The translations under genes were made by a program, and so were the position numbers. The notes under the pieces are model-generated. The model did no database searches, had not been told where the DNA came from, and saw only the letters and a program-made list of their open reading frames with translations. Below, in pieces: positions 3,779 to 43,530 of a stretch of DNA of 46,856 bases. Origin of the DNA: a virus; the IMG/VR virus record IMGVR_UViG_3300044825_002732, positions 1 through 46,856 of that record. One strand, written 5' to 3'. The stretch's first letter is position 1. Every line of letters starts with the position of its first letter.

Positions 3779-5116
3779 TTAACGTTTTACTTTTTTCCTA
3801 TTTGTATTTATCAAATTTATACCATAAGGTTTTCCACCTGGTTGAATATTTTTAGCACCAGTTCCAACTGCACCTGGAGTCATCATTGCAGCATATTTAA
3901 AAAACCCAGTAGTTCCAATTAAAGTATTTGGTTTTCCAGGCATTCTCATTATTCGTGACACTTCTTTTTCAGAATAAGATTCTTTAACATCTTTAATCCA
4001 TGATTTAAACATCATGCCATTTTCTGTAACGCAGATTAAATAATTTGTACCCCTACGAATAATACGACCTATTAATCCAGTATTAAGATTTTCAACAAAC
4101 TGACCTACTTTAAAAATATTCTCATCTATATAATTTTCTCTTAAAGATTTTTGATCAAATTTTGGAGCAACTTCCCAAGTATTGTAACCTTCTTGTTGAA
4201 TTTCTTGTATTCCCATTCCCTGCCTAACTAAATCAAACAATTCAAGTGCTTGTTTAGTTCTGATTTCTTTAGGAAGACCTGCACGAAATGTCATAAAATC
4301 CCCTTCAGCAGCAGCAAGTCTAAGTCTTGATGCTGAGACTCCTTCTACACCCTTATTACTGTCAGGATCCCTATCACCAGATGAAATTACATCAATTATA
4401 TCAAACTGATATAATTGACCATTATAATCATTAGATAGTCTTTCAAATTCTTTAACTCTATCTGCACCACCAACAATTCTCACATTAGCATATCCATCAT
4501 TATGCGCTTTTTTAAGAACATCAAAAATTGTTTTATAGTTTGGATCGTTAACAATTCGTTCACTATGATCAGGGAACAATTTTCTCATGTATGAAATTTT
4601 TGTATCAGGATCTAAAGGATTTTTCTTTTTATCTTGACTACGTGAGGGTACAATTATATAATCTCCACCATCTTCCATTGAAGACATTGCAGCAGTATCC
4701 ATTAATTGTTGATGTCCTATTGTTGGAGGATTAAATCTTCCAAATGCAATGGTAAGAGTTCCTTTAGTTTTTGGAATAGGAAGATATTGTAATGAAGATG
4801 GTTCTTGTTCAAATTGCTGTTCCGGTGCTGGTTGCTGATCAACGGGAATTTGATCTTGAGAAATTTGTTGTTCAGGTGCGTTACTTGCTACAGAACCTAA
4901 AGGAATATTTTTCTCAAATTCAGATTGCTTTGAGTCCCTACCACCAATGACTTGTCGTTTGTTGTAGAACTTAAGTTCAGATCCCACTGTTTTTGCTTCA
5001 AATTCACCAGTAGCCCTATTATACCACCCACCATGCCCATCGCCAACCAGTCCAAGACGCTTTGCCTGAACTGATGCTGAGGTTGCTTCTGAAATAAATT
5101 GAATAAAACTTTTCAT
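3779..5116 (-). CDS. Nucleotidyltransferase (NMN adenylyltransferase-like) with capsid-targeting N-terminus
   Basis: A 445-residue, three-part protein. Residues 1-10, MKSFIQFISE, closely match the T4 capsid-targeting sequence MKTYQEFIAE and end in an I-x-E protease site. After a conserved-looking module (RLGLVGDGHGGWYNRATGEF, 21-40) and a Gln/Pro linker, residues 119-270 are a cytidylyltransferase-like fold. This has GRFNPPTIGH at 126-135 (a TxGH variant of HxGH) and SASRLR at 261-266 in place of the ISSTxxR motif. Residues ~330-385 are a small beta domain (KVGQFVENLNTGLIGRIIRR). The family transfers nucleotidyl groups, for example NMN to NAD. I infer a virion-packaged enzyme; its substrate is unknown. 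Confidence 0.7.
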   Translation of the reverse strand: MKSFIQFISEATSASVQAKRLGLVGDGHGGWYNRATGEFEAKTVGSELKFYNKRQVIGGRDSKQSEFEKNIPLGSVASNAPEQQISQDQIPVDQQPAPEQQFEQEPSSLQYLPIPKTKGTLTIAFGRFNPPTIGHQQLMDTAAMSSMEDGGDYIIVPSRSQDKKKNPLDPDTKISYMRKLFPDHSERIVNDPNYKTIFDVLKKAHNDGYANVRIVGGADRVKEFERLSNDYNGQLYQFDIIDVISSGDRDPDSNKGVEGVSASRLRLAAAEGDFMTFRAGLPKEIRTKQALELFDLVRQGMGIQEIQQEGYNTWEVAPKFDQKSLRENYIDENIFKVGQFVENLNTGLIGRIIRRGTNYLICVTENGMMFKSWIKDVKESYSEKEVSRIMRMPGKPNTLIGTTGFFKYAAMMTPGAVGTGAKNIQPGGKPYGINLINTNRKKVKR

Positions 5117-5168
5117 CCTATACTTTTATATTATTACAGACTTGTGTATTATTAACCTGTTTAATATA

Positions 5169-5176
5169 TATTTATT
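5169..5176 (-). promoter_or_regulatory. T4-type late promoter (AATAAATA)
   Basis: AATAAATA on the minus strand, about 53 bases before the ATG of the nucleotidyltransferase gene and just after the 3' end of the tRNA. It would separate late transcription of the virion genes from the tRNA and replication operon. Confidence 0.55.
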
Positions 5177-5186
5177 CCTTTTATAA

Positions 5187-5257
5187 TGGAGAATACCAGA
5201 GTCGAACTGGTGACTGATGCTTGCAAAGCACCCATTTTACCACTAAACTAATCCCCC
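5187..5257 (-). tRNA. tRNA-Ala (anticodon UGC)
   Basis: All four arms fold over 71 bases: acceptor GGGGGAT/ATTCTCC, D stem GTTT/AAAT, anticodon stem GGTGC/GCATC with loop TTTGCAA (anticodon TGC), and T stem ACCAG/CTGGT with loop TTCGACT. The acceptor has the G3-U70 wobble pair, the main alanine identity element, and the discriminator base is A. CCA is not encoded. The host enzyme would have to add it. It decodes GCA and GCG; GCA appears common in the virion genes here. It lies between the HExxH gene and the nucleotidyltransferase gene. Confidence 0.95.
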
Positions 5258-5273
5258 AATAAAAAGAATTATA

Positions 5274-5681
5274 TCACCTAATGGGCATTAGGTCAAATAA
5301 TTCTGGATGTAGATAACCATACTTTCTCATGATTTCACCTGCTTTTGCATTTGCCTGGTTTTCAGTTACACTTCCAGCACTACGGGATTTGTGAGAAAGA
5401 CCCTTTTCCATGTGTTGCTTATAATGAATATATTCATGAGCAAGGGTTCTTAAAATATCCATCGGGTGGCGATTAATAATACTTAAATGTATTACATTTT
5501 CTTTTGAAATTTCACCAAACGAGGCAATTGTTTTAGCAAAATTAGCATCGTCAATAAGAATGACTGGAATATCATAAGTAAGGCGAAGTTCTCTTTTTAA
5601 AAAAATTTGAAACCTTTTAAGTAAGGAATCAAATTGAATTCTTGTAGTTGGTCTTCCTTTTCCTTTTCCAATCAAAGACAT
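5274..5681 (-). CDS. HExxH zinc metallopeptidase-like protein
   Basis: A 135-residue protein with HEYIH at 82-86 inside a predicted helix (LRTLAHEYIHYKQH), the zinc-binding motif of zincin metallopeptidases. Possible third ligands are E107 and E116 in TENQANAKAGEIMRKYG. The short length resembles minimal phage metallopeptidase domains rather than a secreted protease; no signal peptide is seen. It is the last protein gene before tRNA-Ala and follows the 5694-5876 gene by 12 bases, so it is probably the tail of the replication operon. Substrate unknown; proteolytic activity is inferred from the motif. Confidence 0.7.
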   Translation of the reverse strand: MSLIGKGKGRPTTRIQFDSLLKRFQIFLKRELRLTYDIPVILIDDANFAKTIASFGEISKENVIHLSIINRHPMDILRTLAHEYIHYKQHMEKGLSHKSRSAGSVTENQANAKAGEIMRKYGYLHPELFDLMPIR

Positions 5682-5693
5682 TTTTGAAATTAT

Positions 5694-5876
5694 TTATTCT
5701 GGATCAATAGCACATGCAATTTTATCATCAATGTCATAGATTACTTCACGAATATCATTAATTCTTTGAGAAGGAAATTGATAACTATGATTCTTTTGAT
5801 GTTCAAAAAGAACTTGTCGAATTGCAGCAGCAGAACGAACGTCCATTTTAATTGTTACTTGTTTTTCTTTAGTCAT
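5694..5876 (-). CDS. Small conserved phage protein of unknown function
   Basis: A 60-residue protein starting MTKEKQVTIKMDVRSAAAIR. The middle (AIRQVLFEHQKNH) is predicted helical and the C-terminus is acidic. I recall similar short proteins next to mazG in cyanophage genomes, with no assigned function. Its start overlaps the mazG stop by four bases (ATGA), so translation is probably coupled. No catalytic or binding motif can be seen. Confidence 0.65.
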   Translation of the reverse strand: MTKEKQVTIKMDVRSAAAIRQVLFEHQKNHSYQFPSQRINDIREVIYDIDDKIACAIDPE

Positions 5877-6289
5877 CGGTCGTCAGCAGCGCGGTTTTCG
5901 GAGAAATAAACATCAAAAGCACCCTCAGGATAACGCTTTAAAAGTTTTTGAACATTACGAGCAACTACATCATCAATAGATACTTCAAGTGCCATACAAG
6001 CTTGAGCAACATACCACATAATGTCACCCAGTTCGATAATCATATGCTCCCGATTATCTTCATTGAAGGGTTTGCCTTGAAAAATCATTTTCTTCACGAT
6101 TTCCATAAACTCACCACCTTCAGCATTAATACCAACAGCAGCAGTCAGGAGACGCTCAATATTGGCACCTTTCTCATCAAGAGCAACAAGACGATCAGAT
6201 AGAGAAAGAAAGTCTTTGGATGCATCAGAAGTTACAGCATCCACAAACTCAGCATACTTATCAAAATCAATGTGTTTTACATTTTCCAT
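5873..6289 (-). CDS. mazG: MazG-like nucleotide pyrophosphohydrolase
   Basis: A 138-residue all-helical protein with the MazG metal-binding signature: E57xxE60 in INAEGGEFMEIV and E86xxD89 in IIELGDIMWYV. MazG enzymes hydrolyse nucleoside triphosphates to monophosphate and pyrophosphate using magnesium. Cyanophage versions were first proposed to lower host ppGpp and later reported to prefer deoxynucleotides. A nucleotide-recycling role fits its place between the replicative helicase and small operon genes. Length agrees with single-domain phage MazG. The stop of gp41 overlaps its ATG by one base. Confidence 0.9.
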   Translation of the reverse strand: MENVKHIDFDKYAEFVDAVTSDASKDFLSLSDRLVALDEKGANIERLLTAAVGINAEGGEFMEIVKKMIFQGKPFNEDNREHMIIELGDIMWYVAQACMALEVSIDDVVARNVQKLLKRYPEGAFDVYFSENRAADDR

Positions 6290-7668
6290 TAGAATTTAAA
6301 TCCCTCAAATGATTTTTTAGGTTTTTTGTCTTCGTAATCATTATACTCGTCTTCCTGTCCAGAGTCAAGTATGTCTTTTTGAGCAGTCTGCTCGCAGTCA
6401 TAAAGTCTCATCTTGGCACGGTCAATACCTACAATAAAACGTTTATATACTGTTGGATCATTATAACGATTTTTCAATTGTTTCACCATAATCTGCCCCA
6501 ACTGTTCAAGTTCTTCTGTACTAATAAGGGCAAACATAAAATCAGCAGTAGCAGGGAGACCAAAGGACTCAGAAGTATCAGTAAGTTCAACATCGCTACT
6601 ACCGTAACCACTGCGAGTGGTTTGAGTAGCAGATACGATTGGTACGTTGAACTCAACCGCAAGTCCCCTAAGTTCTTCTGCAATTGCTTTAATATAACTA
6701 TAAGAATTGACAGAAAAGTTCGACTTATACCTAGAGGAAGAGCAAATATTAAGGTAATCAATGAAAATAATATCAGGTCTAAATGACTTCTTAAGTGAAA
6801 GTTCATTAAGAAGTGCTTTAAAATGTCCACTATGTGCAGATGCGGTTGGATATTCCTTAATTATAAGAGTTCCCTGAGTTTTCTTTGCAAGACTTGTTAC
6901 TTTGTTTTCAAACATTTGGCGCGGTAGTTCAACAAGTTGCTGAATTGGTACATTAAGAAGATTAGCATCAATTCTTTCAGCAATTCGTTCCTCTGCCATC
7001 TCTAGAGTGATGTATAAAACATTTCTACCCTGCAAAAGAACAGAACTAGCAACATGACACATAAACAATGATTTTCCAACGCCTGTTCCTGCAAGAGCGA
7101 TGTTTAAAGTTTTATTAGGTAAACCACCCTTAGTTATTTTATTAAAGTATTCTAAATCAAATTGAATTTTATCTTCTTTTCGATGATAAAATTCATATCT
7201 TTCCTCATAATTCTGAAGATAATCATGTCCCACATTATTATCAAAAGATACTGATAGAGCATCAGATAAAATACTTGGAATAGCATCACGATTTTTTTTA
7301 TCGTTTTTACCATCAGCAATATGAATGGATTCCATGAGAGCAAGATAAATTGCCCTATCACGGCACCATTTTTCAGTAGTATCAAGTAACCATTGTTGTT
7401 CTGCAACAGAATTATTGAACTGAGAAACTATACTATTAATTTCTTTGATTTCACTTTCAGTAATATCTGTTCTATTTTCTACTTCGATGTTGAGTGCTTC
7501 AATTGTAACCGATGAACCATACTTAACAATGAACTTAACAATCTCTTCAAATACGACTTTCTCCGTGCGTTGTTCAAAATAATCTGGTTGTATAAAAGGT
7601 ATGACCTTTCGTGAATAATTTTCATTGAAAACTAAATTGCGTAAAATTGTAAGTTCAAGTCGTTCCAT
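6289..7668 (-). CDS. gp41: Replicative DNA helicase (gp41, DnaB-like)
   Basis: A 459-residue DnaB-family helicase that unwinds DNA ahead of the fork and partners with primase. The N-terminal helical domain covers about residues 1-150. The RecA-like motor starts with Walker A GTGVGKS at 194-200. The sequence IIFIDYLNIC provides the Walker B strand, and ATQTTRSGYGS, a DnaB-type hexamer/DNA loop region, follows. Length is close to T4 gp41. It sits downstream of the oxygenase gene with a one-base overlap and upstream of mazG, within an operon that also holds gp43 and UvsX. Confidence 0.95.
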   Translation of the reverse strand: MERLELTILRNLVFNENYSRKVIPFIQPDYFEQRTEKVVFEEIVKFIVKYGSSVTIEALNIEVENRTDITESEIKEINSIVSQFNNSVAEQQWLLDTTEKWCRDRAIYLALMESIHIADGKNDKKNRDAIPSILSDALSVSFDNNVGHDYLQNYEERYEFYHRKEDKIQFDLEYFNKITKGGLPNKTLNIALAGTGVGKSLFMCHVASSVLLQGRNVLYITLEMAEERIAERIDANLLNVPIQQLVELPRQMFENKVTSLAKKTQGTLIIKEYPTASAHSGHFKALLNELSLKKSFRPDIIFIDYLNICSSSRYKSNFSVNSYSYIKAIAEELRGLAVEFNVPIVSATQTTRSGYGSSDVELTDTSESFGLPATADFMFALISTEELEQLGQIMVKQLKNRYNDPTVYKRFIVGIDRAKMRLYDCEQTAQKDILDSGQEDEYNDYEDKKPKKSFEGFKF

Positions 7669-9219: not shown

Positions 9220-9383
9220 TAGAAAATCATCCCGTATTCTTCAAGAAGTATTTTTTTATAAGGTAAACCTTGCTCTCTCAGTTCTTTTACCAATTTTAAT
9301 TTATGATAGAGAGCAGTATCTCCACCAAATCCTAGTGCTTTTAGAATAGTATTCAGTTCTTTGTCGTTAATCGGCAATTCCAT
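9219..9383 (-). CDS. 54-residue conserved protein between gp43 and UvsX
   Basis: A short ORF starting MELPINDKELNTILKALGFG and ending YKKILLEEYGMIF. It is predicted fully helical, with no metal or nucleotide motif. Both ends overlap neighbours as TAATG: its ATG with the gp43 stop, its stop with the UvsX ATG. That arrangement is strong evidence that it is translated. I recall a similarly sized hypothetical gene at this place in T4-like cyanophages. It might link the polymerase to the recombinase, but that is only a guess from position. Confidence 0.8.
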   Translation of the reverse strand: MELPINDKELNTILKALGFGGDTALYHKLKLVKELREQGLPYKKILLEEYGMIF

Positions 9384-12540: not shown

Positions 12541-12699
12541 TCATTCACGCTTTCTTTTAAAAGCACAGACTTTTTTACCAGGTGCCATTGCATATTTAAC
12601 TGTTTTACCATAACAATTTTCTGGAGTTGGAAGTGGAGGATTTCCAAAATCCCCAATCTTTTCCTGAATAATTTGCATGAACTCCTGAAAAGTTTTCAT
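12541..12699 (-). CDS. 52-residue protein with T4-type capsid-targeting N-terminus
   Basis: A short ORF starting MKTFQEFMQIIQEKIGDF and ending CAFKRKRE. The first seven residues differ from the T4 internal-protein tag (MKTYQEFIAE) only by Phe for Tyr. An I-Q-E site follows at 11-13, fitting the (L/I)-x-E preference of the T4 prohead protease. The remainder holds PPLPTPENCYGKTVKYAM and a basic tail, suiting a DNA-associated internal protein. It follows hsp20 by 16 bases and precedes the terminator at 12472-12514. Packaging into the head is inference; translation is likely but unproven. Confidence 0.65.
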   Translation of the reverse strand: MKTFQEFMQIIQEKIGDFGNPPLPTPENCYGKTVKYAMAPGKKVCAFKRKRE

Positions 12700-22961: not shown

Positions 22962-24665
22962 TCAATCTTCAAAAATAAGATTTATCCAAGATTCACTCAT
23001 AGAATTCATAATTGCTACAGCAGTTTTTTCGTCAGAAGCATATCCCCCATGAATTAAATGTCCAATTACAATTTCTTCTTTCATTTGAGTTGTATATTTT
23101 TTACCACGGAATTCAAATTGTTTTTGTCCGGAAGTTCTTGCCTTTTTAAAAGCAACATCAAAATCTCCAGCAACACTACCAGTTCCTACTATTTTGGGCC
23201 CGACTTTTTTACGACTACGAATGGTAGTATCAGGATCCATAGTATTGTAAACATCAGTTTTTATAGACTGACGAATCTTCTGATCTTGCTTTCTCTTATT
23301 TTCTTTACCTACCTGATCAACTGCGGCCGCTCCTGCCGCAGCAGTTCCAACAATTCCTGCAGTTTTTAGATTTCTTGATAAAGAAGAAGTTGAAGATTTT
23401 GACGGACCACCAGAAGAAGATGATCCTGTTGCATATTTTTCTAAACCTGGATACTTCATATTTCCAGTTTTTTCTGCAGGAGATAAAGTAGCACGAACAG
23501 TTTGTGTCAAACCACCACCTTTAGATGGTTTTTCACCTCCAGAAGTAGATCGATTTGTTTTTGGTTTAGTTGTTGGTTTTGGTGCTCTTGTACGAACCAA
23601 TGCACCTGCAAGTTCCGGAGTTTCTTTAGTTTTAGGAAGTGCTTCAGGTTTAAAAGTTGGTTTTGGTGCTCTTGTACGAACCAATGCACCTGCAGGTTCA
23701 GCAGTAGATGATTTAACCTTAGGAAGTGCTTCAGGTTTAAAAGTTGGTTTTGGTGCTTTGGTTGTCACTAAGGAACCTGCAGGTTCAGCAGTAGATGATT
23801 TAACCTTAGGAAGTGCTTCAGGTTTAAAAGTTGGTTTTGGTGCTTTGGTTGTCACTAAGGAACCTGCAGGTTCTGATGTTGCTTTAGTTTTAGGAAGTGC
23901 TTCAGGTTTAAAAGTTGGTTTTGGTGCTTTGGTTGTCACTAAGGAACCTGCAGGTTCAGCAGTAGATGATTTAACCTTAGGAAGTGCTTCAGGTTTAAAA
24001 GTTGGTTTTGGTGCTCTTGTACGAACCAATGCACCTGCAGGTTCAGCAGTAGATGATTTAACCTTAGGAAGTGCTTCAGGTTTAAAAGTTGGTTTTGGTG
24101 CCTTTACACTTGCAGATGTTTCTCCTGCTGAAGGAAGTGCTGGTCTAGAAGGTGTACCAGATAATGCCTTAGTAGATGTTACTTTAGTTCCAGAAGGTTT
24201 AGATGGATTTATACGACTTCTGGGTGCTGTTGGTTCATTCCAAACATTGGTTGTAATTTTATTTGAACCTTTTGGAGCAGTTCTAGCAGGTGACGCTTTT
24301 ACTGTTCGGACTATTGGAGTTGGTGAAGCAGATTTTGCAACATTTTGTGCCAATTTAGCAGTTGAAACTGGATTGAGTGCAGTACTAGTAATAAGAGAAT
24401 CAGTAGCTGCAGTTCTTAAGGGTGTTTTTGCTCTTTTTGCAATAAAACCTGCTACTGCTTTTGCACCTTTAACTAAAGAACCCAATCCAGCCTCATTAAT
24501 GAGTTCAACCATTATTTGATTAGACTCTTCTTTACTATATCCTTCACTTAAAAGGTATTCTAAAATTTGATCATAATTATCAACTTCTTCAACTGATTTA
24601 TTTTGAACTTGCCCATAAATTTTATTATAGGATTCCATTAATCCTAACATTTCTTGGTATCTCAT
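22962..24665 (-). CDS. Repeat-rich virion protein with duplicated helical end modules
   Basis: A 567-residue protein. An N-terminal helical module (DQILEYLLSEGYSKEESNQI) is matched by a similar one near the C-terminus (VIGHLIHGGYASDEKTAVAI, then MSESWINLIFED). Between them is a Pro/Lys/Thr-rich region with six 28-29-residue repeats of the type APKPTFKPEALPKVKSSTAE plus PAGxLVxTx. A module FKKARTSGQKQFEFRGKKYT near residue 520 recalls one in phage internal virion proteins. I chose the ATG at 24665; an upstream TTG is less likely. The TATAAATA at 24687-24694 suits a late virion gene. Its function is unknown. Confidence 0.72.
   Translation of the reverse strand: MRYQEMLGLMESYNKIYGQVQNKSVEEVDNYDQILEYLLSEGYSKEESNQIMVELINEAGLGSLVKGAKAVAGFIAKRAKTPLRTAATDSLITSTALNPVSTAKLAQNVAKSASPTPIVRTVKASPARTAPKGSNKITTNVWNEPTAPRSRINPSKPSGTKVTSTKALSGTPSRPALPSAGETSASVKAPKPTFKPEALPKVKSSTAEPAGALVRTRAPKPTFKPEALPKVKSSTAEPAGSLVTTKAPKPTFKPEALPKTKATSEPAGSLVTTKAPKPTFKPEALPKVKSSTAEPAGSLVTTKAPKPTFKPEALPKVKSSTAEPAGALVRTRAPKPTFKPEALPKTKETPELAGALVRTRAPKPTTKPKTNRSTSGGEKPSKGGGLTQTVRATLSPAEKTGNMKYPGLEKYATGSSSSGGPSKSSTSSLSRNLKTAGIVGTAAAGAAAVDQVGKENKRKQDQKIRQSIKTDVYNTMDPDTTIRSRKKVGPKIVGTGSVAGDFDVAFKKARTSGQKQFEFRGKKYTTQMKEEIVIGHLIHGGYASDEKTAVAIMNSMSESWINLIFED
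23576..24103 (-). repeat. Six tandem in-frame repeats of 84-87 bp
   Basis: Six adjacent units encode APKPTFKPEALPK, then KSSTAEPAG or a variant, then ALVRTR or SLVTTK. Units are nearly identical at the DNA level and mix two linker types and two ends. The order of variants suggests expansion by recombination between copies. Length polymorphism among relatives would be expected. Confidence 0.9.
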
Positions 24666-31329: not shown

Positions 31330-31500
31330 TTATTTTAATTTAATATTAACTGGTTCTAGAGTAAATTTTGTATTTGGTACTGGTCTAGATCCTGGACCAA
31401 ATTGCCCTTTTTTTGATTTATTTAAATTTTCTTGTGATTTTTTATCTAAAGGAATTACGTTCCTAGATAAGTCTTCTTGAAACTGAATGAAAGATTTCAT
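31330..31500 (-). CDS. 56-residue protein with capsid-targeting-like N-terminus
   Basis: A short ORF starting MKSFIQFQEDLSRNVIPLDK and ending FTLEPVNIKLK. The first eight residues resemble the T4 internal-protein tag MKTYQEFI and those at 5116 and 43530 here. The cut site is F-Q-E, less typical than L/I-x-E. The rest is basic, with KSKKGQFGPGSRP, probably unstructured. It lies between the gp23 terminator and the gp3-like gene (ATG 3 bases after its stop). The clear start, position and tag make translation likely. Packaging in the head is inference. Confidence 0.65.
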   Translation of the reverse strand: MKSFIQFQEDLSRNVIPLDKKSQENLNKSKKGQFGPGSRPVPNTKFTLEPVNIKLK

Positions 31501-31565: not shown

Positions 31566-32978
31566 TCACATAAGATTGGCAACTTTAACTCTTCTGTAGT
31601 ATACGTTGGAGTTGGTTGCGATATTGTCTGGTGCTGTTGCAGCAGCGCCGCCCTTAGCAAATGGATTTGCAACGATTCCATAACGAGTCTTAAATCCAAT
31701 TTTTGGCTGGAAGGTCTGCTCGCCAACAGCACGTACCATCTGGAGGGGTACATATGGGCAGTAGAAGAGACCAGCATCATAAGGACTTGCACCCTTATAT
31801 CCAACAACGTAGAACTGGTTAGCAGCAACGTTTGCGGAATATGGATCGATGTATACTCTGTACTTACCTTGGAGAACACCTGCAAAGGTGTTACCAGTGT
31901 CATCAACCTGGAGGTTTGCGTTGAGTGCTGGGGTGTAATCGAGAACACCTGCCATGGTGAGTGCGGAAGCAACGTCAGCAGAGCAGAGGATCATATTACC
32001 CTTTCCTCTACGAGTCTGCTGTGCAATTGCGTTTGCATCGCGCTCGATTTGGAAAATTAGACCCTTAAACTTCTCAACTGACCAACGACCGTTGGAGTCA
32101 ACATCGAGGTCGAAAGTACCAGCAGTAGCGGTATTTACCTGAGCACCAGGAACAGCAACCTTATAAATGGTACGGATGATTTCGCGGTTGATCTCAGCAA
32201 GAATCTCAGTTGAGAGAATGTTTGCGAGTTCCGCTTCAGCATTCAGACCATGGATTGCCTTGAGGTCCTGAGCGAGTTCTAGTGAATACTCAGCCTTGAG
32301 TGCGCGTGACTTGGCAGTAACGGTAAGCTTCTCAATTGAGAATGCCATCTCGTTAAAGTAAGTTCCACTGCCACCATCGCCAAGTGCTTCAGACTCACCA
32401 GTTGACATACCCTCGCCTACGTTGTATGCGAGTTGGTTTGCAGTTGTTGAGTCAAGGATTGAAGGATTGCTACCAGACTGTGCTGAAGTAGTACCTAAAC
32501 CAACTGAACCATCAATAAATCCATTGCTTAGATTACGTGCCTTATTCTGACCTGAGAATGTAGAATCTACTTCGTTGTAGAAAGTCTCAGTACCTGTCTG
32601 ACTGTTATAACGTGAACGCATCGCAAAGATGAGTCCAGTAGGTCCGTTCATTGGTTGAACGCCACAAAGATCATAAGCAATCAGATTTGGCATTGAACGT
32701 CTGATCAGTGAGATCAGAACAGGATCAAAACCTGCAACAGGTGTTCCAGTAGTATTTCCAGCACTACCAGTGTATCCACCTTGAAGGCCTGCACCAGCAA
32801 AACTTTGAGTTGGTGCTTCTGAAAGGAATGAACGCTCCTCACGGAGTTCTCTTTCTTGGTTTTCTAGCAGGATAGCAGTTACCGCTCTACGATGTGAATC
32901 TTTGATTTGATCCATTCCTTGATAATCAAGGATCGGTGCCCACTTCTCCTGCAGATATTCTGCGTTGTACATCTGCAT
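31566..32978 (-). CDS. gp23: Major capsid protein (gp23)
   Basis: A 470-residue homologue of T4 gp23 (521), HK97 fold. Aligned blocks are ELREERSFLSEAPTQSF, PNLIAYDLCGVQPMNGPTGL, SRALKAEYSLELAQDLKAIH, FAGVLQGKYRVYIDPYSAN and GFKTRYGIVANPFAKGG. The N-terminal 54 residues end in FLSE before APTQ, matching the T4 FLTE/A site, so the gp21 protease should cut after Glu54. Shells of this protein form around the gp22 core on the gp20 portal. A ribosome binding site AGAGGT precedes the ATG. I see no perfect late promoter; TTATAAAG lies upstream. Confidence 0.98.
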   Translation of the reverse strand: MQMYNAEYLQEKWAPILDYQGMDQIKDSHRRAVTAILLENQERELREERSFLSEAPTQSFAGAGLQGGYTGSAGNTTGTPVAGFDPVLISLIRRSMPNLIAYDLCGVQPMNGPTGLIFAMRSRYNSQTGTETFYNEVDSTFSGQNKARNLSNGFIDGSVGLGTTSAQSGSNPSILDSTTANQLAYNVGEGMSTGESEALGDGGSGTYFNEMAFSIEKLTVTAKSRALKAEYSLELAQDLKAIHGLNAEAELANILSTEILAEINREIIRTIYKVAVPGAQVNTATAGTFDLDVDSNGRWSVEKFKGLIFQIERDANAIAQQTRRGKGNMILCSADVASALTMAGVLDYTPALNANLQVDDTGNTFAGVLQGKYRVYIDPYSANVAANQFYVVGYKGASPYDAGLFYCPYVPLQMVRAVGEQTFQPKIGFKTRYGIVANPFAKGGAAATAPDNIATNSNVYYRRVKVANLM

Positions 32979-33027: not shown

Positions 33028-34245
33028 TCACTTTTTAGCGACTCTACTGAGAGTTTGAAGATATGCCTCCATGATTGGGGAAACTGAAGTTGACTCAGAT
33101 CCTTCATATGAAACATCCTCTGATAAATTCTCAGTTACATCTCTTTGAGTACCAGTATTTGTTGGGAAATATGATTCCCTCAGAGTTACTAGTTTCTCAC
33201 GATAGTTCTCTTCACTATCAAACTCAACATTTTCTGCAAGAGAAGCGAGTTTGTCTTTCTGAGAAAGTGCGAGACCCTCAGCGACTTCAGCAAAGATTAC
33301 ATCAGCAACTGACTCCGCTAATCTTCTATTTAGAGCAACATTTCTTTCGATTTGCTCGTTGAGTTTTGCTTCCATTTCATCAAGTTTATCTACCATACTC
33401 TCTAGAACATCATATCTATCTTCAGGAATTGTTACATAATGATCTTCAAAAAGACTCTTCATTCCGGCAAGGAATGATTCGGTCATTTCAGTCTTAAGAC
33501 CGTGCTCGACTGCGAGTGCATTCTCTTGAATCCACTCATCAGCGACATACTCTAGATAAGTATCAACACGATCTACAAGACCTTCTTTAATAATTTCGAT
33601 TTCTTCTACGAGTGCTTGCTCGTATGAAGCTTGAAGTTCTTCTTTAATATCAGCAACCTTAGATTTGATTGCTGCTTCAAAAATAGTACGTGCTTTCTCT
33701 TGGAATTCCTCAGAAAGATCTTCACCTTCAAGAAGAGCATTAACATCTTCTTCGATGTCAAATTCTTCTTTCTTCATTTTTTTACCACCCTCTTCTTCCT
33801 CCTCTTCTTCTTCCTCTTCTTCTTCCTCCTCTTCTTCTTCCTCCTCCTCTTTCTTACCGTGCTTTGCTTCTGCTACGGTTTCTTCTTCATCTTCGACGAT
33901 TTCTTCATCAATTAGATCTTCATCTTCTTCAGTTTCTTCCTTTACACCTTGCCCAGGAAGACCTACAGGAGTAGCGGATGTGTGAGGAGCTTCAGCAGAA
34001 GATGCTTTAGCATTTACTACGTTTCTTACTTGAGCAAGAGTTGCTCCTGGTGTTTTTAGTGTTGCTGAGTCGTCGTCTGGACGATAGTTTTCTGGAGTAG
34101 GGCCACCTAAATCCTCCCAAGCACCAGTCTGCCCTGGAATCATTACTCCAGAAGCATTCTGTGCAATATTGTGCATTGGTTCGGCAGATGCAGCCCCTTT
34201 GGTTACTACGTTTTCCATTTCTTGTAAATTTCTACCAACGGACAT
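33028..34245 (-). CDS. gp22: Prohead scaffold core protein (gp22) with 20-Glu run
   Basis: A 405-residue acidic, coiled-coil-rich scaffold protein, longer than T4 gp22 (269). The core is removed by the gp21 protease as the head matures. The C-terminal ~250 residues align with the family (VTIPEDRYDVLESMVDKLDE, SPIMEAYLQTLSRVAKK). The N-terminal part is disordered, with GAASAEP segments and a run of 20 glutamates (33790-33849) between lysine clusters. A perfect TATAAATA promoter lies 32 bases upstream. It sits between gp21 and gp23, as in T4. Confidence 0.93.
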   Translation of the reverse strand: MSVGRNLQEMENVVTKGAASAEPMHNIAQNASGVMIPGQTGAWEDLGGPTPENYRPDDDSATLKTPGATLAQVRNVVNAKASSAEAPHTSATPVGLPGQGVKEETEEDEDLIDEEIVEDEEETVAEAKHGKKEEEEEEEEEEEEEEEEEEEEGGKKMKKEEFDIEEDVNALLEGEDLSEEFQEKARTIFEAAIKSKVADIKEELQASYEQALVEEIEIIKEGLVDRVDTYLEYVADEWIQENALAVEHGLKTEMTESFLAGMKSLFEDHYVTIPEDRYDVLESMVDKLDEMEAKLNEQIERNVALNRRLAESVADVIFAEVAEGLALSQKDKLASLAENVEFDSEENYREKLVTLRESYFPTNTGTQRDVTENLSEDVSYEGSESTSVSPIMEAYLQTLSRVAKK

Positions 34246-34286: not shown

Positions 34287-34937
34287 TTATAGATTTGAAA
34301 GAAAATCTTGGAATAATTGTAACTTATGTTCTTGAAGTTTTCTTTCATCAATTAATGTATTAATTCTACGCTTTGTAGACTCTGCAAGTCTTTCACGAAG
34401 AATTCCACCTTCCCATACCCATTCTTTTCCTTCCATAATTCCTTGAACAAAAGCATCAGGAGCTGAAGGATCTGCAACAATATCTGCTGCAGTTGCTAAC
34501 ATAAAATCTTCACCGACAATCTTATGCCCCTCATTCGTCATTTTTAATGAACCAACACCACGAGAAGAAACTCCTAGACAAACACCTTCACCAATTAGTG
34601 ATTTTGCAATCTTACCCATTGGTGTTTCAAGAAGTTGTGCCTTACCTCTAAAATTTGTTCCATCTTGTTCAAGAGAAACAATTTTATGAGAAACTCTATC
34701 AAGATTAACAGTAGGACCATCTGGATGTCCTAGTTCACCAAGAGCACGACCTTTGGAAACAAATGATTCATTGTATCTCTTTACCTCACGGGCAAGAGTT
34801 TGCATTGGATACATTCTTCCATTACGATTGCAAATATCACCTTGAAGGAAAATTCCTTCAATAAACATTTTCTTTTCAGCACCTTTCCCTTCAGTGATGA
34901 ATTTTACTTGTGATACTTCTTCTGTGATGAGTTTCAT
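34287..34937 (-). CDS. gp21: Prohead core protease (gp21)
   Basis: A 216-residue serine protease that matures the head by cutting scaffold and capsid proteins after (L/I)-x-E. Catalytic candidates are His71 in LGELGHPDGP and Ser124/Ser125 in CLGVSSRGVG, the pattern of the T4 prohead protease family. VKFITEGKG near the N-terminus contains an I-T-E site that could be a self-cleavage point. Length equals T4 gp21 (212). It should recognise the FLSE site in gp23 and the tag ends noted at 5116, 43530 and 12699. Confidence 0.95.
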   Translation of the reverse strand: MKLITEEVSQVKFITEGKGAEKKMFIEGIFLQGDICNRNGRMYPMQTLAREVKRYNESFVSKGRALGELGHPDGPTVNLDRVSHKIVSLEQDGTNFRGKAQLLETPMGKIAKSLIGEGVCLGVSSRGVGSLKMTNEGHKIVGEDFMLATAADIVADPSAPDAFVQGIMEGKEWVWEGGILRERLAESTKRRINTLIDERKLQEHKLQLFQDFLSNL

Positions 34938-34938
34938 T

Positions 34939-37975: not shown

Positions 37976-37994
37976 AGTTTTTTAAACCTCTAAA

Positions 37995-40154
37995 TTAAAA
38001 GTTTCCGATAACTTCTTCAAAATCAACACCAGTCTTGGTGGCAATAAAGTTCAGTCCAATGAAATTAATCGATCTTGATGGTTTAATATAAATGTCAGCA
38101 ATAAATTCATTGTTATCAATAACAGCAGCTGTGTTGTTAGTTTCATCACAAATAACAACATAATCAAAAATTCCCCTCTTTGCTTGAACATCACGTAAGA
38201 AAGGTTCAATTGTATTTACGAAATTAGTTCTTGTGATTTCATCATTAAATTCAAACAACGCATCTTTTGCTGCCTGAGAAATGGCATTTTCGATATAAAC
38301 AAAGAGGCGACGAACGTTAATTCTATCAAACGCAGATGCCTTAGCAAGTCCAGTTTTATCACCAAATAGAATAATGCCTGATCCAGGAGAGAAAATTATT
38401 GGATTAACTCTATTTGAATAAAGTCTATCTCTTTGAGATTTTGTTGGATTATATGCTAATTTAACTGAATTTAAAATTGCACCTCTTGTTGTTCCTGCAG
38501 GTGAATACCATGGGAAATTATTAATATCATTACGAGCACAAAGACCAGCAATATCACCATTTAGAGGAACATATCTAAATGTATCTGCAAATCTATCATA
38601 CATGTACTTGTATCCACTATCAAAAACTGCATAAGAAGAAGATGCAACTGAACTATAGAAAGAAATTATTCTTTCAGTAATAGTTTCTGCAGAATTTACA
38701 GTAACTGAAGTTTGCGTAGAAGTATCAGTTAAAGAAGAACCTCGATATGGTGAAATAAATGCAATTGCATCTTTTCTTAATTCTGCAACTGAAATTAACT
38801 TATTTGCAAGTGCTTGAGCAGTAAAAATATCATACGCAGCAGATCCCATTAGTAAAAAGTCAATAGTATAATTTTCAGTAGATTCAAATAAATCATATCC
38901 AGAAGAAAGATCTGCAAGAGATGATGATAAAGAACCGGAGGTTGTAATTCCAGTATTACCATTATAATCTTTTCCACCACTTAATCTATTTGTTGAAGAT
39001 CCTGTAGCCGCAAAAATGACACCATCAGTTTCTTGATCCCAACCTACATCAGATTCTAAATTAAATTCTGAAGAAAATCCAGTTGTTACTATTCCTATAG
39101 GAGCACCTAGTCCGAAAATATATTCAGAATTATTTGCGAGATATTTTCTCCAATATGATGGACTACCTACAGAGAAAACTGCATCAGATGCTTTTGATAG
39201 ACTTAAATGTTTTTCAAGAATAGTTCCAGCATTTCCACTAATTGATCCAGTTGTATCAATTACAACTACATGAATTTCATCAAATCTTGAGTTTCTTGAT
39301 GCTGCATATGCAGAAGTTCCTGGTCTAGGTGCAACATTATTCCATGGAATAGATGTTGAGGTTGTTAATCCAATAGTTTGTTGATCAAACCAGTCAAGTG
39401 TTGATGTATATAAAGATGTTGTGAAAGGTGATGATTGACCATTTGTATGAATTGCAACAAATGCAGTTGAAGAGAATGAATAAACACCACTTTGCTGATA
39501 ATCTACTTGTGTTTCAGTCCCTCCTGCAGAAACTGCACTTAAAACCTTAACTTCAATTTTATCAATATCTACACCTGTAATTATTCCTTTTAAATATCCA
39601 TCTAAAACTGATGTTGTTCCAGATCCTGGATTAATTTTTCCAGTTAATGATTGGGTAATACCATAACCAACTTGAATGGAAGTTGTATTAATTCCAGTTA
39701 AAATTTGATCTGCTTTGGAATCTATAAATGCTACTCCAAGTCCATTAGACCAAGATCCTGGATTTTTAGATGCAACTACAACATTAGAAAGAATATTTTC
39801 ATCATAACCTAAATCATTGTAATGCTCTAAACTATCAATTTTAACACTAGATGCTGTACCAACAAAACCATTGGTTAATTGATCATCATTTGATCTTACA
39901 ATCCTCATTGAACCACCATACGCCAAATATGATGATGCAACCATCCAATGCTCGTAATGTTTATCAGTGGAGTGTGGTTTTCCAAAAATAGTCAATAAAT
40001 CATTTTCATTTTCCACTAGAGTTGGAAGATTTACAGGTCCTTTAGAAAATGGAGCTACAAGTGCTCCAATTTTATTTGATGATGGTGTTACTCTTCCTAG
40101 TGTTAAATCAATTTCCTTTACTACAATTCCAGGAGATGCTAAATTTAGCGGCAT
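37995..40154 (-). CDS. gp18: Tail sheath protein (gp18)
   Basis: A 719-residue contractile sheath protein, slightly longer than T4 gp18 (659). The N-terminal SPGIVVKEIDLTLGRV and the following GALVAPFSKGPVNLPTLVEN are typical. The C-terminal third (VNPIIFSPGSGIILFGDKTG, INVRRLFVYIENAI, GLNFIATKTGVDFEEVIGNF) is the conserved inner domain that grips the tube. The extra length lies in the variable outer domains (about 200-450). A perfect TATAAATA is 37 bases upstream. Confidence 0.96.
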   Translation of the reverse strand: MPLNLASPGIVVKEIDLTLGRVTPSSNKIGALVAPFSKGPVNLPTLVENENDLLTIFGKPHSTDKHYEHWMVASSYLAYGGSMRIVRSNDDQLTNGFVGTASSVKIDSLEHYNDLGYDENILSNVVVASKNPGSWSNGLGVAFIDSKADQILTGINTTSIQVGYGITQSLTGKINPGSGTTSVLDGYLKGIITGVDIDKIEVKVLSAVSAGGTETQVDYQQSGVYSFSSTAFVAIHTNGQSSPFTTSLYTSTLDWFDQQTIGLTTSTSIPWNNVAPRPGTSAYAASRNSRFDEIHVVVIDTTGSISGNAGTILEKHLSLSKASDAVFSVGSPSYWRKYLANNSEYIFGLGAPIGIVTTGFSSEFNLESDVGWDQETDGVIFAATGSSTNRLSGGKDYNGNTGITTSGSLSSSLADLSSGYDLFESTENYTIDFLLMGSAAYDIFTAQALANKLISVAELRKDAIAFISPYRGSSLTDTSTQTSVTVNSAETITERIISFYSSVASSSYAVFDSGYKYMYDRFADTFRYVPLNGDIAGLCARNDINNFPWYSPAGTTRGAILNSVKLAYNPTKSQRDRLYSNRVNPIIFSPGSGIILFGDKTGLAKASAFDRINVRRLFVYIENAISQAAKDALFEFNDEITRTNFVNTIEPFLRDVQAKRGIFDYVVICDETNNTAAVIDNNEFIADIYIKPSRSINFIGLNFIATKTGVDFEEVIGNF

Positions 40155-40190
40155 CTTTATTCTCCTACAAGTCCAGAATTATTCTAAAAG

Positions 40191-40198
40191 TATTTATA
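40191..40198 (-). promoter_or_regulatory. T4-type late promoter (TATAAATA) for gp18-gp19
   Basis: TTTATAAATACT on the minus strand in the 62-base gap after gp17, 37 bases before the gp18 ATG. Confidence 0.75.
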
Positions 40199-40216
40199 AA
40201 TTCCAGACCCTTTATT

Positions 40217-41938
40217 CTATCTATATTCCCACATATAAGATTTATCACCATATTCATCTAAATTCCAAACTTCTAAAGTATCATTCTCATATTTTGAATT
40301 TGATAAAATCCATCTGTCTCCAGTTTCTTCATCAATTGTAACTCCCATGTCATCTAATCCATCAGAAATAAATCCAAAAGGTGCCATATCTTGCTCAATC
40401 TGATTTTTTTGTTCTTCATAAATTCTTTTACGAACATCATTGTCCGTCATTTCCTTGAAATAATCTTGTGCTACTAACCAAGAAAATATCACAAGACACA
40501 TTGCCAAATCATCATTACATCCTTCTTCTGCCTCAAAAGAATTATGTTTTTGAGCAAATGTTGTTAATTCACTAATAATTTCATAATCACTAACAAGTAA
40601 TTTATCATCCTCAAGTAAAGTTTTTAAGTTAGAACATCCTAACTTTTTAACTGCAGCGGTCATACGAACCCCAAGTTGAGATTTTTTACCACTGAAACCG
40701 GATCCAACAATTTGACCAGCACGACCACGCATAGCGCACATGAGAACATTATCATATTCTAAATCAAAGTGTAAAATATTTGCTACCTGATCACCGATAT
40801 CATTAACTTCAATAAGTAACCAAGCATCGTTATATCCTTTTGCAACTTCATTAATAATACTTGGAAATAACATTGGTTTAATTTCATTATTTCTATATTT
40901 TGCTACCGCTTTGTATGGAAAATTGGTAATATCAAAAACAATAAATGCTGAGTAATCATTCCCAAGTCCTCTTGCAACATCGACAGTTATAAGATAATTG
41001 TGCTCTTCTTTTGGATGTTCATAAACATCTAGCCCAGCATTTCTTTTAATTGGTTCATCATATACCAAATTTCTAAGTTTTGATGGATTGATAAGAGTAT
41101 TGACAGAACCTAAGAATTCACATTCAAACTCTACCTTAAACTGTTGTTCGGAGGTGTTTGCAATTGTCTGCTCTTTCCAGTGCTCGTCTCTGCCAGGAAC
41201 TTCAGACCAATGAACATCTGTTGGTACATATTCGTTCTTACCTTTTTCCGAATCATGCCACATGCGGTAGAAATGATTCATACCGCGAGGCGTTGATACT
41301 ATGATTACTTTGGTTGATTTACCAGAAGAAATAGTAGGATAAACAGAAGCGAAGAAGTCGTCAGCAATATGGTTAGGAATAAACGCAAATTCGTCCAGGA
41401 ATATAATATTATAAGAGCCACCGCGTACCGCAGAGGCGCTAGTAGAAGCAGCAATAATTTTTGAACCATTTTCTAACTCCAGTGAACCTTTGTTCCAGGA
41501 TAGAATACCCTGTTGCATCCACTTAGGAAGGTTTTCATATGCAAGTTGCAATCTCTGAAGAAGATCTCTGGCAGTGGATGCTTTGTTTGCCAGAATAGCT
41601 ATATTAACGTTGTCATTAAAAACTGCATAATGTAACAAATATGAAACACAAGTTGTTGATTTACCCGTCTGACGGGGCATCTTACAGATATTGAATCTAT
41701 GGTCGTGGAATCTTTGAATTAATTTCTCCTGGAATGGATACATCTTGAAGGGAACAAGACCATGATCGAGAGAAACAATCTTAATATAATTTCTTGCAAA
41801 GTAAACTGGATCCTCTTTACATTTAAGGAATTCAATAATCTGTTCCTCAGTCCATTGAATAGGTGTATTTGCTCTCTTTAAATTTGGATTAGAGAGATAT
41901 GCATCAGACTGTTTGAGTTGAATATCTTCAATTGGCAT
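40217..41938 (-). CDS. gp17: Terminase large subunit (gp17)
   Basis: A 573-residue packaging motor and nuclease. ATPase part: MPRQTGKST (88-95) as Walker A, YNIIFLDEFAFIP as Walker B with the catalytic Glu, and VSTPRG as the coupling motif. Nuclease part (RNase H-like): VDVARGLGNDYSAF, LIEVNDIGD and CNDDLAMCLV, carrying the metal-binding acidic residues. It moves DNA into the head through gp20, with gp16. Length is slightly below T4 (610). It follows the 41944-43218 virion gene by 5 bases. Confidence 0.97.
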   Translation of the reverse strand: MPIEDIQLKQSDAYLSNPNLKRANTPIQWTEEQIIEFLKCKEDPVYFARNYIKIVSLDHGLVPFKMYPFQEKLIQRFHDHRFNICKMPRQTGKSTTCVSYLLHYAVFNDNVNIAILANKASTARDLLQRLQLAYENLPKWMQQGILSWNKGSLELENGSKIIAASTSASAVRGGSYNIIFLDEFAFIPNHIADDFFASVYPTISSGKSTKVIIVSTPRGMNHFYRMWHDSEKGKNEYVPTDVHWSEVPGRDEHWKEQTIANTSEQQFKVEFECEFLGSVNTLINPSKLRNLVYDEPIKRNAGLDVYEHPKEEHNYLITVDVARGLGNDYSAFIVFDITNFPYKAVAKYRNNEIKPMLFPSIINEVAKGYNDAWLLIEVNDIGDQVANILHFDLEYDNVLMCAMRGRAGQIVGSGFSGKKSQLGVRMTAAVKKLGCSNLKTLLEDDKLLVSDYEIISELTTFAQKHNSFEAEEGCNDDLAMCLVIFSWLVAQDYFKEMTDNDVRKRIYEEQKNQIEQDMAPFGFISDGLDDMGVTIDEETGDRWILSNSKYENDTLEVWNLDEYGDKSYMWEYR

Positions 41939-41943
41939 AAAAA

Positions 41944-43218
41944 TTACCTTTGTTCAATCCAGTTCAATACTGCAAGTGCCTTTTTATTGGTATTGGGAGA
42001 TGCACAAGCAAGTGTAAAAGTATCACTGACTGTACCAATACCTGATCTTGCAAGTTGCAAATCTGCAAGTCTATCAATCTCAATCAAAGTAGAACCACCA
42101 GAAACTATGAATCCAGAAAGAATATCTCTACCGCCAGAAAGTGCAGTTGCAGAAGTGTCATATTGAACAAATGAATCTACATCTGCATGATTCGTCCAGT
42201 TTGGATTAGTTAATGTTGCATTCTGCAAAAGTTTCCAATACACATTTGTGTTATCATTTGTTACTGCTTGTAAAGATCGTAAAAGCATTACTGCATTTAA
42301 AGCAGTTGATTTAAGACGCAAACTTACAATGGGATAAAACACATTATCTACAGTCATTGTAGTTCCAGTAATACCATTAGATTGACTCAAAAGAGTTCCA
42401 AGTTTATCTACATTACCATCTTGGATAAGAGAATTGGAACCCTGATACATGTAATGAGTTCCTGCAACTCCAGTTACATTCTCAATCTCAAGACGAATGG
42501 GAAGGAATGGGGTAGAACACCAAACTTTATCAAGATTGTTTGAATTATAAAATGTGTGACTTTTAATAGTTTCACCTTCCATTAACCAACCAAACTCTAC
42601 TGTTCCTGCGCCATACCACTCATAACTAATGGAAATCATTTGCTGTTTTGTTGGATCTGCAGTTACTCCAGTCCAACCATTACCATCAAACTTTTCACCA
42701 TTCCATTCATCTCTGAATACTCTTCTTTCTGTGGTAATTCCAGATGTAGTGGTACGAATTACATAAGAATATGTTCCCCCATTATCCTCAAAGTAAGCAC
42801 CATTACTATCATCAAATAATCCAAATCTTCTACGAATACCTACCTGTGGAGCATCAAGACGAATTGCGAATGCAAGTGTTGCTGGTCTTCCAGGAATATA
42901 TCTCATCACGTTCTTGGTTTGTCTTATAACCTTACTACCAGCAGTAGAACCAACTTGCATAGTAACATTACTGGAATATTGGTTCCAGGTTGCAGTTCCA
43001 ACTCCAACTACTCTTTCATCCCAAACATCAGTTTCTTTGCCATACTGAAAGGTATTAAAGAAAACTGTTTGAAAAGGTGCAGTCTTTAATCTATTATTAT
43101 TAGAAAACTGAGGTCTCCAGTCTGTCTGGTTTCCCCAGTGATCTGCAATATTGTAAACTTCAAATAAAGTCCTTTCTTGATTTAGAAAGTCTTGTGTATT
43201 TCTATTCCACTGAGCCAT
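41944..43218 (-). CDS. Large beta-rich virion structural protein
   Basis: A 424-residue protein starting MAQWNRNTQDFLNQERTLFE with YNIADHWGNQTDW soon after. Much of it resembles a jelly-roll or lectin-type sandwich: RPATLAFAIRLDAPQVGIRR, GRFGLFDD-type turns, QMISISYEWYGAGTVEFGWL. This is like adhesin or fibre domains in cyanophage virions. There is no T4 homologue in this position between gp16 and gp17, so it is an inserted structural gene. I recall similar proteins next to terminase genes in marine myophages. Receptor binding or capsid decoration are both possible. Confidence 0.7.
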   Translation of the reverse strand: MAQWNRNTQDFLNQERTLFEVYNIADHWGNQTDWRPQFSNNNRLKTAPFQTVFFNTFQYGKETDVWDERVVGVGTATWNQYSSNVTMQVGSTAGSKVIRQTKNVMRYIPGRPATLAFAIRLDAPQVGIRRRFGLFDDSNGAYFEDNGGTYSYVIRTTTSGITTERRVFRDEWNGEKFDGNGWTGVTADPTKQQMISISYEWYGAGTVEFGWLMEGETIKSHTFYNSNNLDKVWCSTPFLPIRLEIENVTGVAGTHYMYQGSNSLIQDGNVDKLGTLLSQSNGITGTTMTVDNVFYPIVSLRLKSTALNAVMLLRSLQAVTNDNTNVYWKLLQNATLTNPNWTNHADVDSFVQYDTSATALSGGRDILSGFIVSGGSTLIEIDRLADLQLARSGIGTVSDTFTLACASPNTNKKALAVLNWIEQR

Positions 43219-43221
43219 AAA

Positions 43222-43530
43222 TCATTCACTCCACGATAATCTTTCTGGTCTGTATCTTTTTGCGTTTTTTACAGTTACTGAATTTGTAGTTATTGGATAA
43301 ATGTTATGAACAATTGCTCCAGGATATTCTCCCTGAAGTTGCTCTGCAAGTGCATTCTTATCCATAATATTGCCTTCAACTTCCATACGATAAAGTCTAC
43401 CCTGCCAAACTACATCAGCAAGAAAAGACTCTCTAGTAGTTTCTGGTTGTGGTGAGTTCATATAGAGATTTCCATTAAAATCTCCTGCAATATTAATACT
43501 TTCTGAAAGAAATTGTTGAAATGATTTCAT
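43222..43530 (-). CDS. 102-residue protein with capsid-targeting-like N-terminus
   Basis: Starts MKSFQQFLSESINIAGDFNG. The first ten residues match the T4 targeting tag MKTYQEFIAE at 4 positions identically, with conservative changes elsewhere, and end in L-S-E, the same site as gp23 (FLSE). Residues 12-102 form a compact alpha/beta domain (LADVVWQGRLYRMEVEG, LAEQLQGEYPGAIVHNIYPI). I recall related proteins near terminase in cyanophages. Predicted: tag removed by gp21, domain left inside the head. It lies 1 base after the composite protein gene and 3 before the structural gene. Confidence 0.7.
   Translation of the reverse strand: MKSFQQFLSESINIAGDFNGNLYMNSPQPETTRESFLADVVWQGRLYRMEVEGNIMDKNALAEQLQGEYPGAIVHNIYPITTNSVTVKNAKRYRPERLSWSE

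What the first reader, a model, noticed from the sequence alone, without database searches (positions are those of the whole stretch)
3779..43530. A set of proteins with T4-type capsid-targeting tags: a predicted injected cargo system
T4 internal proteins IPI-III start with MKTYQEFIAE, a targeting sequence cut off by the gp21 prohead protease at an (L/I)-x-E site. In this window four unrelated proteins have matching N-termini: MKSFIQFISE (5116), MKSFQQFLSE (43530), MKTFQEFMQIIQE (12699) and MKSFIQFQED (31500). The capsid protein here carries FLSE at the expected cut point, so the local protease should accept LSE/ISE. The bodies after the tags differ completely. This suggests a modular packaging code in cyanophages that loads diverse proteins, one an enzyme, into the head for possible delivery to the host.
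Basis: partly seen in the sequence, partly recalled or inferred. Interest (0 to 1): 0.82.

Follow-up and report, generated by a model that had tools for sequence, protein, structure and literature searches.

The report
Cyanophage head-loading tag on proteins
Viruses of aquatic cyanobacteria put the same ten-residue address label, like one known from phage T4, on dozens of otherwise unrelated proteins including enzymes; published analyses have already found several labelled proteins in purified virus particles, so they are probably packed in the head and injected into the host.

Summary
The four N-termini are real. A (3779-5116, NMNAT/cytidylyltransferase-like) and B (43222-43530, phrog_1742) carry the complete T4 capsid-targeting sequence (CTS): K2, F4, F7, [LI]8, E10, then A/S. 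C (12541-12699) and D (31330-31500) keep only the targeting half. The contig is a T4-like cyanophage fragment with S77 prohead protease, gp22 and gp23; gp23's cut site is F-L-x-E in 80 of 80 close homologues. The tag is not chance: 8 of 837 genes in gp23-anchored contigs against a mean of 0.045 for 419 permuted motifs. It heads 289 distinct proteins in 55 body clusters, mostly basic. NMNAT homologues retrieved by catalytic domain alone carry it in 76 of 80. Published virion proteomes, read against the tag: in S-CREM2 4 of 4 tagged ORFs are detected (SAM lyase, kinase-like, NMNAT, one unknown); tagged NMNATs are detected in S-SCSM1, S-SM1 and (one residue shorter) S-SZBM1; S-PM2's untagged NMNAT was not. 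Against: three tagged small proteins (B homologues in two phages, S-SZBM1_192) were not detected. Cleavage and injection are unproven. Best reading: a CTS-type code loading diverse cargo into cyanophage heads.

The parts
3779..5116 (-). A: NMNAT/cytidylyltransferase-like enzyme with complete CTS (tag codons 5087-5116, MKSFIQFISE, then A)
   Evidence: phrog_395 E 3e-100; PF01467 E 9e-7; homologues in virions by published MS
5087..5116 (-). CTS of A: K2 F4 F7 I8 E10, A11
   Evidence: 80 of 80 close homologues tagged; 76 of 80 found by domain only
43222..43530 (-). B: phrog_1742 protein of unknown function with complete CTS (tag codons 43501-43530, MKSFQQFLSE, then S)
   Evidence: (E 2e-37); homologues not detected in S-SCSM1 or S-SZBM1 virions
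12541..12699 (-). C: 52-aa basic protein with targeting half of CTS (MKTFQEFM); I-Q-E not conserved in S-SRM01
31330..31500 (-). D: 56-aa basic protein just downstream of gp23, targeting half of CTS (MKSFIQF), no canonical cut site
   Evidence: by eye only, its body resembles L356:1057-1227, which has a full tag
34287..34937 (-). gp21-like prohead protease (Peptidase_S77), the expected tag-cutting enzyme
   Evidence: PF03420 E 5e-36; phrog_207
33028..34245 (-). gp22-like scaffold/core protein, the expected docking partner of the tag
   Evidence: PF25623 E 3e-80; phrog_237
31566..32978 (-). gp23 major capsid protein
   Evidence: PF07068 E 1.5e-152
32817..32828 (-). gp23 maturation site FLSE (residues 51-54), then A
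   Evidence: F-L-x-E in 80 of 80 close homologues; that this is the cut point is by alignment with T4 (inference)

Best explanation
The N-terminal decapeptide M-K-x-F-x-x-F-[LI]-x-E is the cyanophage form of the T4 capsid-targeting sequence. During head assembly it docks unrelated proteins onto the gp22-type core (F4 and F7), so they are enclosed when gp23 builds the shell. The S77 protease then cuts after E10, as it is expected to cut gp23 after F-L-x-E, freeing the mostly basic cargo inside the head. The cargo (here an NMNAT-like enzyme and small proteins; elsewhere SAM lyase, kinase-like, GNAT-like, ADP-ribosyltransferase-like, nucleotidyltransferase and cell-wall enzyme families) is then injected with the DNA and acts in the first minutes of infection. 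Shown: the tag, its conservation at the T4 functional positions, its presence on many body types, and published MS detection of several tagged proteins in purified virions. Inferred: docking partner, position inside the head, cleavage, injection, cargo function.
For: (1) Non-random: 8 of 837 genes against mean 0.045 for 419 permuted motifs; reversed DNA pattern 0 in 50 records and 0 in 11 named phages. (2) Constrained positions are the T4 ones: in 48 distinct NMNAT N-termini K2 48, F4 47 (Y 1), F7 48, [ILV]8 48, E10 48, A11 47, while 3, 5 and 9 vary. (3) 76 of 80 NMNAT homologues retrieved by catalytic domain alone start with the tag (68 strict, 8 with F8), reversed control 0 of 80; in the 68, tag-to-domain distance is 97-156 aa. 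(4) gp23 site F-L-x-E 80 of 80. (5) 289 distinct tagged proteins (T4 and window included) in 55 body clusters; five consecutive tagged genes in L304, 8 on 80 kb of G051. (6) Positive control: the pattern finds T4 IPIII and IPII. (7) Tagged bodies are basic: 97 of 109 net positive against 444 of 1093 other genes of the same loci (p 1e-26). (8) Virion MS: S-CREM2 4 of 4 tagged ORFs detected, background 52 of 219, p 0.003; tagged NMNAT in S-SCSM1, S-SM1, S-SZBM1 (one-residue-shorter tag); untagged S-PM2 NMNAT reported not detected. (9) Virus-specific: 4 exact DNA matches in 257 Gb of prokaryote contigs against at least 120 stretches in viral contigs. (10) Residues 1-26 of one tagged protein (L439:378-839), of ten scanned, hit phrog_2667 'internal head protein' (E 0.006, weak).
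Against: Three tagged proteins were not detected by MS: phrog_1742 in S-SCSM1 and S-SZBM1, and S-SZBM1_192. The MS papers allow that non-structural proteins were contaminants (PMC10665884, passages). No mature N-terminus is reported in what I read. NMNAT is one family counted in several phages, so the MS hits are not all independent. C and D lack a conserved cut site; B's body is not basic. Only 5 of 16 large tagged records hold S77 and Gp23, though all are fragments and 6 of 6 examined carry other T4 core genes. Four of 80 NMNAT homologues do not meet even the relaxed tag, and the HTVC008M NMNAT has none.
Confidence: 0.82

Rival explanations
1. The tag docks proteins to the head core, but they stay with the capsid as core or DNA-condensing components rather than being delivered to act in the host.
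For: Many bodies are short and basic; T4 IPIII affects head assembly (PMC9026906, passages).
Against: Several cargoes are enzyme families with no obvious structural use: SAM lyase PF23780, Glucosaminidase PF01832, DPBB PF03330, NTP_transf_2 PF01909, CTP_transf_like PF01467; T4 Ips are injected (PMC12373910, passages).
Confidence: 0.2
2. Tagged proteins found by MS are abundant cytoplasmic contaminants that co-purified on CsCl; the tag does something else, such as docking to another phage protein.
For: The authors raise this; phrog_1742 in two phages and S-SZBM1_192 are tagged but undetected.
Against: In S-CREM2 detection follows the tag, 4 of 4 tagged against 52 of 219 of all genes and 28 of 195 non-structural genes, while its DNA polymerase, ribonucleotide reductase and UvsW helicase are not in Table 3; the protease-site half of the tag is conserved.
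Confidence: 0.1
3. The shared N-terminus is remnant homology of one paralogous family whose bodies diverged, not a portable tag.
For: Short and low-complexity bodies limit homology tests.
Against: 8 of 20 tagged representatives scanned match seven different Pfam families above cut-off; S-PM2 and HTVC008M NMNATs lack the tag while DUF6267 carries its own tag in G051.
Confidence: 0.03
4. Chance or compositional resemblance.
For: Single hits in bacterial contigs and S-TIM5 may be chance.
Against: Permuted and reversed controls.
Confidence: 0.01

Closest known systems
T4 internal proteins IPII and IPIII and their capsid-targeting sequence (CTS)
   Same: Same decapeptide pattern at the positions reported essential for targeting (4, 7) and processing (8, 10); unrelated, mostly basic bodies; S77 protease and gp22 core in the window; found by the same DNA pattern.
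   Different: Usually F rather than Y at position 4; cargo includes conserved enzymes, among them a protein called core for cyanophages (PMC3037559), not only small anti-restriction proteins; many more cargo families.
T4 Alt (head-packaged ADP-ribosyltransferase; PMC9026906, passages)
   Same: Tagged family C3 looks ADP-ribosyltransferase-like: the 50 rows listed by the second-look aligner are, by title or as I recall, enzymes of that superfamily, best Z 7.4.
   Different: Suggestive only: model pLDDT 65, Foldseek's own list has no match at E 0.001 or better and mixes in unrelated folds. No sequence link to Alt was tested; C3 has the IP-type CTS.
Virion-associated NMNAT, kinase and SAM hydrolase of cyanophages (PMC9602691, PMC10665884, PMC9146016, PMC3037559)
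   Same: These are proteins that carry the tag.
   Different: In the passages and sections I read these papers propose carriage or contamination, or list the protein, and name no targeting signal.
Giant-phage (SPN3US/phiKZ) inner head proteins with prohead-protease propeptides (PMC5694885, passages)
   Same: Head proteins with a propeptide cut after x-x-E.
   Different: Mostly long propeptides with A-x-E or S-x-E sites; no M-K-x-F-x-x-F motif in the passages read.

Membership tests
T4-type CTS-targeted internal proteins | N-terminal about 10-residue tag with aromatic 4 and 7 | tested here: met
   A, B, C, D all have F4 and F7
T4-type CTS-targeted internal proteins (A and B) | [LI]8-x-E10 processing site | tested here: met
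   A; B: E10 invariant in 18 of 18, position 8 I or L
T4-type CTS-targeted internal proteins (C and D) | [LI]8-x-E10 processing site | tested here: not met
   C and D are therefore not filed as members, only as bearing the targeting half
T4-type CTS-targeted internal proteins | S77 prohead protease and gp22 core in the same genome, with a like site on gp23 | tested here: met
T4-type CTS-targeted internal proteins | Present in purified virions | tested here: inconclusive
   Published MS on homologues: A in four phages; B not detected in two; none seen for C and D or for the window's own phage
T4-type CTS-targeted internal proteins | New N-terminus after E10 in the mature head | not testable with these tools
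   needs N-terminal MS
T4-type CTS-targeted internal proteins | Injected into the host | not testable with these tools
   needs infection experiments
T4-type CTS-targeted internal proteins | Basic cargo | tested here: met
   97 of 109 tagged bodies net positive; in the window A +6, C +5, D +7, but B -2
ADP-ribosyltransferase superfamily (cluster C3, not in the window) | ART fold | tested here: inconclusive
   pLDDT 64.8, Foldseek best E 0.2, VIA Z up to 7.4; no Pfam match for two members

The most novel reading that the evidence does not exclude
T4-like phages of cyanobacteria and other aquatic hosts share one address code that turns the head into a general effector-delivery device: any gene that acquires the decapeptide is loaded, trimmed and injected. 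Cargo sets resemble a secretion-system arsenal (SAM lyase against restriction, kinase, ADP-ribosyltransferase, GNAT, nucleotidyltransferase, cell-wall enzymes), and the widespread NMNAT is injected to rebuild NAD+ at once, against NAD-depleting defences (recalled, no call) or to feed other cargo. The motif would then predict the injected proteome of these phages from sequence alone.
Probability: 0.5. Interest if true: 0.88.

Novelty: new variant of a known kind. Interest (0 to 1): 0.74.

Why it matters
Virion proteomics of cyanophages keeps finding enzymes whose presence the authors could not explain or separate from contamination. A ten-residue signal explains several of them, makes cleavage and delivery directly testable, and lets one list candidate injected proteins for a major group of aquatic phages. 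It widens T4 head-cargo targeting from a few coliphage anti-restriction proteins to conserved enzymes.

Tried and rejected
C-terminal tags: S-CREM2 ORF12 and S-SCSM1 gp279 end in tag-like letters, but over 2465 long ORFs the motif lies in the last 20 residues 7 times against about 4.5 expected from ORF interiors (reversed motif: 1, against 1.6), so no general C-terminal tag is claimed.

Late-promoter check: TAAATA within 100 bp upstream in 27 of 55 tagged representatives against 694 of 2061 other genes, p 0.02; too weak to use.

Function of B: model pLDDT 65; best structural neighbours T7 Gp2 (Foldseek E 0.22; Z 4.7 over 49 residues) and phage phi29 p6 (Z 4.3); inconclusive.

Is the tag tied to T4-like genomes? 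47 of the 80 listed tag-scan loci hit a window core gene. Of 16 large tagged records, the same 5 hold S77 and Gp23; of the other 11 I fetched 6 (one whole, five in part) and 6 of 6 have T4 core genes; 5 were not examined.

At least three clusters (L434, L436, L414) may be chance. In S-SCSM1 I counted 49 CDS labelled virion although the paper reports 45 detected; I think some labels are by homology. S-SZBM1 was searched whole only with the stricter DNA pattern. Pfam was run on 20 of the tagged representatives: 8 match above cut-off, 9 match nothing at E 0.01, 3 only below cut-off.
Full report
What is there. The window is a whole 46,856-bp virus record, itself a linear fragment, of a T4-like cyanophage whose best match among named phages is Synechococcus phage S-SRM01 (80.7% identity over 54% of the first 20 kb). 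A is an NMNAT/cytidylyltransferase-like enzyme (phrog_395, PF01467); B is phrog_1742, function unknown; C and D have no PHROG or Pfam match at E 0.01 and in the phage collection match only the two S-SRM01 records at E 0.01. The head module lies in the same window: S77 protease, gp22 scaffold, gp23.

Does the tag match T4? The review of Black's work (PMC9026906, passages read) states that residues 4 and 7 of the IPIII CTS serve targeting, 8 and 10 processing, and that D at 10 blocks processing but not targeting. A and B meet all four positions. C and D meet only 4 and 7; D has D10, and its S-SRM01 homologue shows the same, while C's I-Q-E is missing in S-SRM01. The gp23 site is F-L-x-E in 80 of 80 close homologues, the same letters as F7-[LI]8-x-E10 of the tag.

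Is it chance? In contigs fetched only through gp23, with families A and B removed, 8 of 837 distinct genes, in five body families, carry the motif; 419 permuted versions average 0.045, the highest is 4 and none reaches 8. Reversed DNA patterns give 0 in 50 virus records and 0 in 11 named phages, against 59 and 21 forward matches. As a positive control the pattern finds T4 IPIII and IPII, and also T4 gp61.1.

Is it conserved as a unit? The 80 best NMNAT homologues, retrieved with peptides outside the tag, all have it, two with GTG starts. With a query of the catalytic domain only and Syn9 first, 76 of the 80 kept have it (68 strict, 8 with F8); two more have F4, F7, L8 but no E10, one has L4, one has no clear tag. 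Distances from tag to domain vary from 97 to 156 aa while the tag stays. S-PM2 and HTVC008M NMNATs lack it.

Is it modular? 289 distinct tagged proteins, T4 and the window included, fall into 55 body clusters. Of 20 representatives scanned, 8 match Pfam above cut-off (S-AdoMet lyase, Glucosaminidase, DPBB_1, NTP_transf_2, DUF6267 twice, DUF5661, DUF5662), and a GNAT-like and a kinase/APH-like one match below cut-off. Cluster C3 may have an ADP-ribosyltransferase fold (best Z 7.4, low-confidence model, no Foldseek match at 0.001). Tagged genes cluster: five consecutive in L304, eight on 80 kb of G051. Tagged bodies are basic, 97 of 109 net positive against 444 of 1093 other genes of the same loci, as T4 IPs are described (PMC9026906); B is an exception.

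Are tagged proteins in virions? S-CREM2 (PMC10665884, section 18 with Table 3 read): the motif occurs in 4 ORFs of the 167,876 bp searched (the missing 7 kb lie inside a tail-fibre gene), and 4 of 4 (ORFs 6 SAM hydrolase, 13, 14 APH-like kinase, 154 cytidylyltransferase) are among the 52 of 219 proteins detected; hypergeometric p 0.003, or 0.0004 against 28 of 195 non-structural genes. ORF136 (MQTFSMFFSE) and ORF12 (tag-like letters behind a short extension), also detected, were not counted. S-SCSM1 (PMC9602691, section 13 read): 1 of 2 tagged ORFs, the NMNAT, is a virion protein; the phrog_1742 homologue is not so labelled. S-SZBM1 (PMC9146016, Table 1 read): the cytidylyltransferase with a one-residue-shorter tag is detected; two strictly tagged small proteins are not. 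S-SM1 (PMC3037559, section 26 read): a cytidylyltransferase, T4-GC190, is reported in the virion; the genome's one NMNAT homologue is also its one tag match by pattern. The same section says S-PM2's GC190 was not detected by Clokie et al. 2008 (that paper not read); it is untagged. Depth differs between studies and NMNAT is one family, so this is strong but not conclusive.

Mechanism. Inferred from T4: docking on the core through F4/F7, enclosure, cutting after E10, release, injection with DNA. Only tag, conservation and virion presence are shown. For C and D the simplest reading is targeting without processing, or tags decaying; this is inference.

Novelty. In T-even phages, Ips were found by their signal sequence and Ip1-3 block GmrSD enzymes (PMC12373910, passages). 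My literature searches listed no paper whose listing or passages I saw link a CTS to cyanophage proteins; only open-licence PMC text was searched, and most listed papers were not opened. So, as far as I could see, this is a known mechanism with a new and much wider range: a new variant of a known kind.

Noticed in passing
T4 NC_000866 18966-19130 (-), L410: T4 gp61.1 (54 aa, hypothetical) starts MKTFKEFIKED, a complete CTS-like tag, so it may be a further T4 internal protein; whether this is in print was not searched.
   Followed up: partly
L306:1085-1591, L338:962-1504, L282:1211-1858 and relatives (cluster C3): Tagged family with a possibly ADP-ribosyltransferase-like fold and an invariant H26; a possible counterpart of T4 Alt.
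   Followed up: partly
S-CREM2 OR473000 3837-5081, L032:15759-16313, L348:7160-7690, L022:16817-17326: One tagged body cluster holds the S-CREM2 SAM lyase (detected in virions) and proteins of three other contigs: a candidate head-carried anti-restriction enzyme (only the S-CREM2 member was scanned against Pfam).
   Followed up: partly
L304:5912-9422: Five consecutive genes on one strand, each with the tag, with bodies in different clusters, like an internal-protein locus.
   Followed up: partly
window 43225-43530 (-), residues 33-83: Model of B weakly resembles T7 Gp2, an RNA polymerase inhibitor (Z 4.7, Foldseek E 0.22); inconclusive.
   Followed up: partly
window 22962-24665 and 43532-45508 (-): Two large, very basic proteins (+44, +45; the first repeat-rich by eye) with three internal [LI]-x-E sites each, possibly further core or head proteins cut in maturation.
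   Followed up: no
S-CREM2 OR473000 7704-10313 (-): The protein annotated as Cas9, reported in virions, has no Pfam match here at E 0.01 and carries tag-like letters near its start and at its C-terminus.
   Followed up: partly
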